From assembly GCA_947499005.1 (NCBI GenBank), contig CANMML010000019.1, forward strand, positions 17,411 to 81,410: DNA of 64,000 bases, given 5' to 3'. A model generated the notes under the pieces. That model did not search any database. It was not told the DNA's origin and saw only the letters and a list, made by a program, of their open reading frames with translations. Source of the DNA: an uncultured Aquimarina sp. (GTDB lineage: Bacteria > Bacteroidota > Bacteroidia > Flavobacteriales > Flavobacteriaceae). Positions 5,201-64,000 of this stretch are shown piece after piece; position 1 is the stretch's first letter; each line of letters begins with the position of its first letter. The position numbers and the translations under genes were made by a program.

Positions 5201-5230
5201 TTGTTTAATTGAATAAAATATCTACTTTTG
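5201..5230 (+). promoter_or_regulatory. Promoter of the divergent small gene
   Basis: TTG (5201-5203), 19 nt, TACTTTTG (5223-5230). Confidence 0.65.
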
Positions 5231-30457: not shown

Positions 30458-30473
30458 AACAGACTTGTCTGTT
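30458..30473. promoter_or_regulatory. Candidate TetR operator (autoregulatory)
   Basis: AACAGAC-TT-GTCTGTT palindrome; its central TTG (30465-30467) is also the -33 element. Confidence 0.65.
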
Positions 30474-30494
30474 TTTAAAATGATCTTATATTTG
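30465..30494 (+). promoter_or_regulatory. Promoter of the TetR gene
   Basis: TTG (30465-30467), 19 nt, TATATTTG (30487-30494). Confidence 0.7.
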
Positions 30495-62247: not shown

Positions 62248-63371
62248 GTGGTGTATTACATTCAAAGTTCTATTTTTATGTGAGGATTCACAGGCTAAGT
62301 GTTGCTCAAAGAAGAAGTCTAGGTGTTGTGAATTGCTTTCAAAGTTCTATTTTTATGTGAGGATTCACAGGATAATACGGTAGATTCTGTTGTAGGGCAA
62401 GGTTGTGAATTGCTTTCAAAGTTCTATTTTTATGTGAGGATTCACAGGTTGAATGAGCTTGTTAAGTCAATCCTCCTCGTTGTGAATTGCTTTCAAAGTT
62501 CTATTTTTATGTGAGGATTCACAGGCCATGCTAATGGTCTAACGAATAACCAACCGTTGTGAATTGCTTTCAAAGTTCTATTTTTATGTGAGGATTCACA
62601 GGTGGCATAACACCAAATGTAGCAGCGATTAAGTTGTGAATTGCTTTCAAAGTTCTATTTTTATGTGAGGATTCACAGGGGAAGTCCCCAAATAGCTACT
62701 AATCCAATGTTGTGAATTGCTTTCAAAGTTCTATTTTTATGTGAGGATTCACAGGCCAATTCTTTGTGCCAATTCTTTGTTTGGAGTTGTGAATTGCTTT
62801 CAAAGTTCTATTTTTATGTGAGGATTCACAGGTACTCCATCAACAATGTGGCCTATATGCTCGTTGTGAATTGCTTTCAAAGTTCTATTTTTATGTGAGG
62901 ATTCACAGGACTAGGTGAGCCATCTATGGATAACGAATAGTTGTGAATTGCTTTCAAAGTTCTATTTTTATGTGAGGATTCACAGGTGACACTAACGATC
63001 TAATTTGTTTATTTGAGTTGTGAATTGCTTTCAAAGTTCTATTTTTATGTGAGGATTCACAGGTTTCAATTGTTAAACATTGATATATTATTTGTTGTGA
63101 ATTGCTTTCAAAGTTCTATTTTTATGTGAGGATTCACAGGTATAGCATAAACAACACTTGCAAGTTTAGCGTTGTGAATTGCTTTCAAAGTTCTATTTTT
63201 ATGTGAGGATTCACAGGGTTAAGGTGTTTTTTAGTTTAAAGGCGACAGTTGTGAATTGCTTTCAAAGTTCTATTTTTATGTGAGGATTCACAGGATTCCC
63301 ATATTTAATGAAATAATCCTGTATGTTGTGAATTGCTTTCAAAGTTCTATTTTTATGTGAGGATTCACAGG
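62248..63371 (+). CRISPR. CRISPR array, type II-C-like: 15 repeats of 47 bp, 14 spacers
   Basis: Consensus GTTGTGAATTGCTTTCAAAGTTCTATTTTTATGTGAGGATTCACAGG, period about 77 bp. Starts: 62248 (degenerate, 4 mismatches), 62325, 62402, 62479, 62556, 62633, 62709, 62786, 62863, 62940, 63017, 63094, 63171, 63248, 63325. Spacers 30 bp except spacer 6 (29 bp). Confidence 0.99.
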
Positions 63372-63423
63372 ATACCTGTCGTAAGCCTTGACTTTACTAA
63401 GGTTTTTAACCTTGTTCAAATTG

Positions 63424-63475
63424 AAAAAACGATGCTTATGGTGTTCTTTTACTAGAATACAAGCATCGTTTTTTT
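63424..63475. terminator. Bidirectional terminator-like hairpin between array and cas2
   Basis: AAAAAACGATGCTT...AAGCATCGTTTTTT stem with an inner GTGTTCT/AGAATAC extension. Confidence 0.75.
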
Positions 63476-63478
63476 ATT

Positions 63479-63844
<366 letters not shown>

Positions 63845-64000
63845 TCAGGCAGTAATATTTTTCTTGAATGTCCGGTATAGCAATCATAAAGACTTTGAGT
63901 CGTTCTACTTACCGCATTCATAAGCTACCGTCTGGACACATCTTTAAAAAGCAACCAGCCTTGCATTATTGAGGCGAATTTTTGGAGTCCAATCCAGAAA

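What the first reader, a model, noticed from the sequence alone, without database searches (positions are those of the whole stretch)
62248..63371. Each CRISPR repeat appears to carry its own Bacteroidota promoter (TTG-N19-TATTTTTA)
Seen directly: within the 47-bp repeat, TTG at positions 2-4 is followed by exactly 19 nt and then TATTTTTA at 24-31 (7 of 8 matches to TAnnTTTG). The same TTG-N19-TAnnTTTG layout occurs in this window before tRNA-Glu (2167-2196), the XRE-divergent gene (5201-5230) and tetR (30465-30494). Established: Bacteroidota sigma factors use -33 TTG / -7 TAnnTTTG, and Neisseria II-C repeats carry internal promoters. Inference: each spacer is transcribed independently, starting near the repeat 3' end (about positions 36-40), so crRNA 5' ends could be set by transcription rather than processing. 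I recall, without verification, that other Bacteroidota 47-bp II-C repeats have TATCTTTG at this position.
Basis: partly seen in the sequence, partly recalled or inferred. Interest (0 to 1): 0.72.

Follow-up and report, generated by a model that had tools for sequence, protein, structure and literature searches.

The report
Promoter box inside every CRISPR repeat
In this Bacteroidota bacterium and its relatives, every repeat of the Cas9-type CRISPR array appears to carry the core of the phylum's own kind of promoter just before each spacer, so each phage memory could be transcribed on its own, as is already known in Neisseria and Campylobacter but using a different promoter box at a different place.

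Summary
The array is real: 14 exact 47-bp repeats plus one degenerate terminal repeat, with TTG at 2-4, N19 and TATTTTTA at 24-31. On this repeat alone the match is unremarkable: it lacks the key final G, and TAnnTTTA is not enriched before genes of this genome. Across the phylum it holds. Among 81 long type II-C repeats, exact TAnnTTTG occurs in 36 of 78 distinct sequences, against 2.7 in shuffles and 0 on the reverse strand. The tracrRNA anti-repeat pairs only with about positions 2-23, ending where the box begins, and the tracrRNA's own TAnnTTTG would start it at that edge. In 40 degenerate upstream terminal repeats, 48% of sites before the box are changed but 1% of box sites; truncations almost never pass it. 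The TTG is not supported as a separate element. The predicted start, repeat position 36, lies 12 nt before the spacer, so crRNA 5' ends are not simply set by transcription. Repeat-encoded promoters were already proposed for two Flavobacterium species from the TTG alone; I found no report of the -7 box, its phylum-wide conservation or this footprint.

The parts
62248..63371 (+). Type II-C CRISPR array, 15 repeats of 47 bp, 14 spacers; crRNA sense is the + strand, running from the leader-distal end towards cas2
   Evidence: sense fixed by the tracrRNA anti-repeat on L004
62248..62294 (+). Degenerate upstream (leader-distal) terminal repeat: positions 3, 7, 11 and 13 changed, positions 14-47 including the box intact
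62325..62347 (+). Example repeat, positions 1-23: tracrRNA-pairing part (anti-repeat matches positions 2-24 exactly) containing the TTG at 62326-62328
   Evidence: L004:6626-6648; duplex -35.7 kcal/mol
62271..62278 (+). -7 box TATTTTTA of the terminal repeat; predicted start 62283
62348..62355 (+). -7 box TATTTTTA, repeat 2; predicted start 62360
62425..62432 (+). -7 box, repeat 3; predicted start 62437
62502..62509 (+). -7 box, repeat 4
62579..62586 (+). -7 box, repeat 5
62656..62663 (+). -7 box, repeat 6
62732..62739 (+). -7 box, repeat 7
62809..62816 (+). -7 box, repeat 8
62886..62893 (+). -7 box, repeat 9
62963..62970 (+). -7 box, repeat 10
63040..63047 (+). -7 box, repeat 11
63117..63124 (+). 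-7 box, repeat 12
63194..63201 (+). -7 box, repeat 13
63271..63278 (+). -7 box, repeat 14
63348..63355 (+). -7 box, repeat 15 (leader-proximal; would transcribe into the leader)
63372..63475 (+). Leader region with a strong hairpin ending in a T run (about 63423-63475), likely terminator for run-on array transcripts
   Evidence: -30.9 kcal/mol, z -6.5; the simple terminator scan did not list it
63479..63826 (-). cas2, convergent with array transcription
   Evidence: TIGR01573, E 2.2e-19

Best explanation
Each repeat of this type II-C array contains a Bacteroidota primary-sigma promoter whose essential part is the -7 box at repeat positions 24-31 (TATTTTTA here, TATCTTTG most often in relatives). 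RNA polymerase starts about 5 nt after the box, near repeat position 36, and transcribes about 12 nt of repeat, the 30-nt spacer and then the 5' 23-24 nt of the next repeat, which pair with tracrRNA. The tracrRNA is made from a gene upstream of cas9 whose own TATCTTTG starts it exactly opposite repeat position 24. The repeat is thus two modules: positions 1-23 pair with tracrRNA, and positions 24-47 are the promoter and start region of the next crRNA. Transcription runs towards the leader, which works because no leader promoter is needed. Shown here: anatomy, conservation, limit of pairing, terminal-repeat footprint. Inferred: actual initiation, start position, RNase III processing and 5' trimming.
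For: Exact TAnnTTTG after position 16 in 36/78 distinct long repeats (2.7 in shuffles, max 10 of 300; 0 on the reverse strand), and 6/22 vs 0.6 after clustering at 30% edit distance. 42/58 clustered repeats have a strong box at 21-28, against 2.0 (max 6) in shuffles; information drops to about 0.05-0.2 bit just after the box. The box slides (N18-23 after TTG) while keeping its consensus. The anti-repeat ends at about position 23 and tracrRNA TAnnTTTG boxes put its start at 19-28 in 24 of 53 loci, relaxed-box density 0.057 vs 0.003 per nt elsewhere; in this genome exactly at 24. Upstream terminal repeats: 341/713 sites changed before the box, 3/240 in the box; truncated remnants keep at least 24 nt in nearly all cases. 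Sigma-A box at -12 to -5 in F. psychrophilum (PMC9723704). Published RNA-seq: in-array transcripts towards the leader in F. columnare (only eight reads; PMC8092290) and both halves of an IS-split array transcribed in F. psychrophilum (PMC10309648).
Against: No start site has been mapped in any Bacteroidota II-C array that I could find. This repeat's box lacks the final G. 16 of 58 clustered repeats have a weak or no box. The -33 TTG has no independent support. A start 12 nt before the spacer differs from the proven cases, where it lies inside the spacer. Positions 37-47 are also kept in terminal repeats; outside-in truncation would explain that, but it is not proven.
Confidence: 0.76

Rival explanations
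1. The array is transcribed from one promoter in the leader-distal flank (left of 62248) and cut into crRNAs by tracrRNA and RNase III; the box in the repeats is inherited chance.
For: Weak T-rich and box-like matches exist in the left flank (62003, 62227), and one long transcript would suffice for tracrRNA-guided processing.
Against: No TAnnTTTG in the left flank of this array. Box conserved phylum-wide beyond shuffles. Terminal repeats keep the box half while the flanks differ between arrays.
Confidence: 0.1
2. Positions 24-47 are kept for another reason: an RNA element for 5' trimming of crRNAs, or a Cas1-Cas2 recognition element, and only resemble a promoter.
For: Positions 32-47 are also intact in most terminal repeats; repeat ends form a weak inverted repeat.
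Against: Cas1-Cas2 acts at the leader end, not on the oldest repeat. The conserved letters are the phylum's promoter consensus, and the same box sits at the tracrRNA start. A type VI-B repeat in the same genome as L067 lacks the box.
Confidence: 0.1
3. The array is transcribed from the leader on the opposite strand, as in most CRISPR types.
For: Leaders usually hold the promoter; a promoter was predicted in the leader of Riemerella (PMC5006608).
Against: The tracrRNA strand, its nexus and its terminator fix the crRNA sense as +. A hairpin followed by T lies in the leader. No TAnnTTTG in the repeat on the reverse strand in any of 78 repeats.
Confidence: 0.02

Closest known systems
Repeat-embedded crRNA promoters of Campylobacter jejuni type II-C (PMC3656092) and Neisseria meningitidis type II-C (cited there and in PMC5006608)
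   Same: Promoter core in the 3' part of every repeat, one transcription unit per spacer, one RNase III cut for the 3' end.
   Different: Those use a sigma-70 extended -10 box at the very end of the repeat and start inside the spacer; here it is a Bacteroidota TAnnTTTG-type box at 24-31 with a predicted start about 12 nt before the spacer.
Proposed repeat promoters of Flavobacterium columnare (PMC8092290) and F. psychrophilum (PMC10309648)
   Same: Same phylum and same direction (towards the leader); internal promoters proposed.
   Different: Both rest on the TTG motif alone. The evidence here says the TTG is the uninformative part and the -7 box the conserved one.
Riemerella anatipestifer CRISPR1 (PMC5006608)
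   Same: 46-47-bp II-C repeats of the same family.
   Different: The paper states that no promoter was found in the repeats; an R. anatipestifer record here (L155) has TATCTTTG at 25-32. The tool it names for its promoter screen (BDGP) is not specific to this phylum.
Bacteroidota sigma-A (sigma ABfr) promoters, TTTG at -33 and TAnnTTTG at -7 (PMC7366714, PMC9723704)
   Same: Box, position and spacing in most relatives.
   Different: This array's box ends in A. The -33 element could not be identified in F. johnsoniae (cited in PMC7366714) and is weak in the regions examined here.

Membership tests
Type II-C CRISPR-Cas | cas9 of type II | tested here: met
   TIGR01865, 509 bits, on contig C39
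Type II-C CRISPR-Cas | type II cas1 and cas2, without csn2 or cas4 | tested here: inconclusive
   cas1 TIGR03639 and cas2 TIGR01573; no other cas gene seen, but cas1 is split by an insertion sequence at a contig break
Type II-C CRISPR-Cas | tracrRNA with anti-repeat | tested here: met
   L004:6626-6648 equals repeat positions 2-24; followed by nexus and terminator
Repeat-embedded promoter system (Campylobacter/Neisseria kind) | promoter core within each repeat, conserved | tested here: met
   sequence level only:
Repeat-embedded promoter system (Campylobacter/Neisseria kind) | transcription start inside the spacer, so that it sets the crRNA 5' end | tested here: not met
   predicted start 10-12 nt before the spacer in 46-47-bp repeats; prediction only
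Repeat-embedded promoter system (Campylobacter/Neisseria kind) | mapped primary 5' ends for each spacer | not testable with these tools
   no transcriptome reads available
Bacteroidota sigma-A promoter | TAnnTTTG at -7 | tested here: inconclusive
   window box 5 of 6 letters; full consensus in 36 of 78 related repeats
Bacteroidota sigma-A promoter | TTG about 19 nt upstream as a functional element | tested here: inconclusive
   present in nearly all repeats but shared for other reasons; not kept in terminal repeats

The most novel reading that the evidence does not exclude
Bacteroidota II-C repeats are a 36-bp core (tracrRNA-pairing module plus -7 promoter ending at the start site) with an optional 10-11-bp extension after the start site, about one helical turn, which gives crRNAs a 5' repeat-derived tail unlike the proven Campylobacter case. 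The extension and tail may reflect a Cas1-Cas2 ruler or a new 5' maturation step.
Probability: 0.3. Interest if true: 0.68.

Novelty: new variant of a known kind. Interest (0 to 1): 0.56.

Why it matters
If true, one-promoter-per-spacer is the rule for II-C across a large phylum with a different primary sigma factor, so separate lineages place their own promoter core in the repeat. It explains why these arrays can be read towards the leader, gives a mapped prediction that existing or simple RNA-seq can test at single-nucleotide level, corrects a published negative for Riemerella, shifts attention from TTG to the -7 box, and offers a natural per-guide promoter for Bacteroidota guide-RNA engineering.

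Tried and rejected
Opposite-strand transcription (rejected: tracrRNA strand; 0 reverse boxes). TTG as a selected element (not supported). Chance for the single repeat could not be rejected from the window alone. The first terminal-repeat count used a half-repeat match, which cannot see truncations beyond about position 31; I repeated it with free suffix matching and the boundary held. Information content after aligning on the box is biased upward; shuffles aligned the same way give 0.1-0.96 bit per column. Type I-C repeats as a control were useless (GC-rich); only one type VI-B array with a readable repeat was found, and it has no box. NF038189 proved to be Cas13d, not Cas13b. The simple terminator scan missed the leader hairpin.

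Full report
Observation. The window holds a 15-repeat array at 62248-63371. Fourteen repeats are identical; the first is changed at positions 3, 7, 11 and 13. TTG (2-4), N19 and TATTTTTA (24-31) are exact in all 14. Taken alone this is not special. The last base of the box departs from TAnnTTTG; in 234 upstream regions of this genome TAnnTTTG is 3-fold over shuffles while TAnnTTTA is at background. The full TTG-N19-TAnnTTTG pattern occurs four times in the window against two expected. The box scores at the 94th percentile of coding 31-mers and at the 43rd percentile of best boxes in upstream regions of the same genome.

Surroundings. The window is the right end of contig C19; cas2 (63479-63826, minus) lies next to the array and converges with it. 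cas9 and most of cas1 are on contig C39 (L004). Upstream of cas9, L004:6626-6648 equals repeat positions 2-24 letter for letter and then diverges. Read on the other strand it is a tracrRNA with a Rho-independent terminator, so crRNA sense is the window + strand and transcription runs from the degenerate end towards the leader. Twelve bases before the end of pairing stands TATCTTTG; with the -12 to -5 position of the sigma-A box measured in F. psychrophilum (PMC9723704) the tracrRNA would start exactly opposite repeat position 24. Between array and cas2 lies a strong hairpin followed by T, which would stop run-on transcripts.

Comparison. 396 Bacteroidota genomes searched with the Cas9 model gave 65 with a true Cas9, and a Cas9-profile search of GTDB genomes gave 80 more loci. 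I extracted 113 repeats and used 111: 81 long (44-50 bp) and 30 of 36 bp. Exact TAnnTTTG after position 16 is present in 36 of 78 distinct long repeats, against 2.7 in dinucleotide shuffles (maximum 10 of 300) and 0 on the reverse strand; after clustering at 30% edit distance it is 6 of 22 against 0.6. With a graded score 42 of 58 clustered repeats have a strong box at 21-28, against 2.0 in shuffles. The box starts mostly at 24 but slides from 23 to 28, so the gap after TTG runs 18-23, overlapping the N18-20 peak of TTG before TAnnTTTG boxes in upstream regions of the same loci. Right after the box, information falls to 0.05-0.2 bit. TATTTTTA, the window's form, is the second commonest box (8 repeats).

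Pairing does not explain the box. In 53 long-repeat loci with a recognisable anti-repeat, pairing fades at about position 18-24. In 24 of these the tracrRNA strand has a TAnnTTTG that puts its start at repeat position 19-28; with a relaxed box the density there is 0.057 per nt against 0.003 further away. The tracrRNA thus begins where its complementarity begins, and the crRNA box begins where pairing ends.

Footprint in terminal repeats. The upstream terminal repeat of each array is not part of any crRNA except as the sequence before spacer 1. If it were only a processing relic it could decay throughout. Of 91 arrays, 46 have changes only in positions 1-22, two only after 22, 12 in both. Aligned on the box, 40 degenerate terminal repeats of the long class are changed at 341 of 713 sites from -22 to -5, 19 of 160 at -4 to -1, 3 of 240 at the six box letters and 13 of 626 after it. 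A second count with no half-repeat requirement found about 30 truncated remnants, nearly all at least 24 nt long, that is from the box to the end; three to five shorter ones exist, two of which (L054, L197) still hold or re-form a box. A TTG at N18-22 is not kept (8 of 40, 5.0 expected). I read this as selection to keep the promoter core before the oldest spacer. It is the strongest evidence here, and it says that the -7 box matters and the TTG does not detectably.

Mechanism. Predicted: start near position 36, about 12 nt of repeat, a 30-nt spacer, then the 5' 23-24 nt of the next repeat pairing with tracrRNA (duplex -35.7 kcal/mol) and cut by RNase III. In Campylobacter the start lies within the spacer and fixes the crRNA 5' end (PMC3656092). 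A 46-bp-repeat Flavobacterium Cas9 accepts 22-30-nt spacers in vitro (PMC12609912), so trimming may be optional. Some 36-bp repeats (L040, L045, L062, L168) have GATCTTTG at 24-31 and would start at the repeat's last base; others (TACATT, TAGATT or GATATT at 31-36 with TTG at 9-11) would start inside the spacer, like Campylobacter. That second class is a lead, not a test.

Prior work. Repeat-encoded promoters are established for Campylobacter and reported for Neisseria, and were proposed for F. columnare (PMC8092290) and F. psychrophilum (PMC10309648) from TTG alone. A Riemerella study (PMC5006608) reported none in its repeats, yet L155 (R. anatipestifer) carries TATCTTTG at 25-32. A full-text search for TAnnTTTG with CRISPR array returned two papers, neither reporting the box in repeats. 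The library is open-access only, so prior mention elsewhere cannot be excluded.

Verdict. Ordinary as a principle, new as a variant: a phylum-specific -7 promoter core inside long II-C repeats, with strong evolutionary support and no start-site mapping yet.

Noticed in passing
window 63880-64000 and L004:11795-11874: cas1 is interrupted near its 3' end by an insertion sequence with terminal repeats CTACCGTCTGGACACA and a 10-bp duplication CTTATGAATG; both contigs end inside it, so spacer acquisition is probably off while the array and cas9 look intact.
   Followed up: partly
L034-L039, L042, L047, L051, L069, L078-L081, L084, L085, L088, L090, L091, L093 (36-bp repeats): A second repeat class has TTG at 9-11, N19 and TACATT, TAGATT or GATATT at 31-36, reaching the spacer, which would place the start about 7 nt inside the spacer as in Campylobacter; their tracrRNA boxes, where found, point to repeat positions 34-36 instead of about 23.
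   Followed up: partly
L138: Flavobacterium sp. xlx-214 has 50-bp II-C repeats, longer than the 48 bp reported as the maximum (in PMC5704556).
   Followed up: no
L155: Riemerella anatipestifer repeats contain TATCTTTG at 25-32 although a published analysis found no promoter in them.
   Followed up: yes
L197, upstream terminal repeat: The first half of the box is overwritten by unrelated sequence, but the new sequence re-forms a TAnnTTTA box shifted by one base.
   Followed up: no
L167: A Fibrobacterota MAG contig carries the same Cas9 and repeat family with TAAATTTA at 24-31, perhaps transferred from Bacteroidota or a binning error.
   Followed up: no
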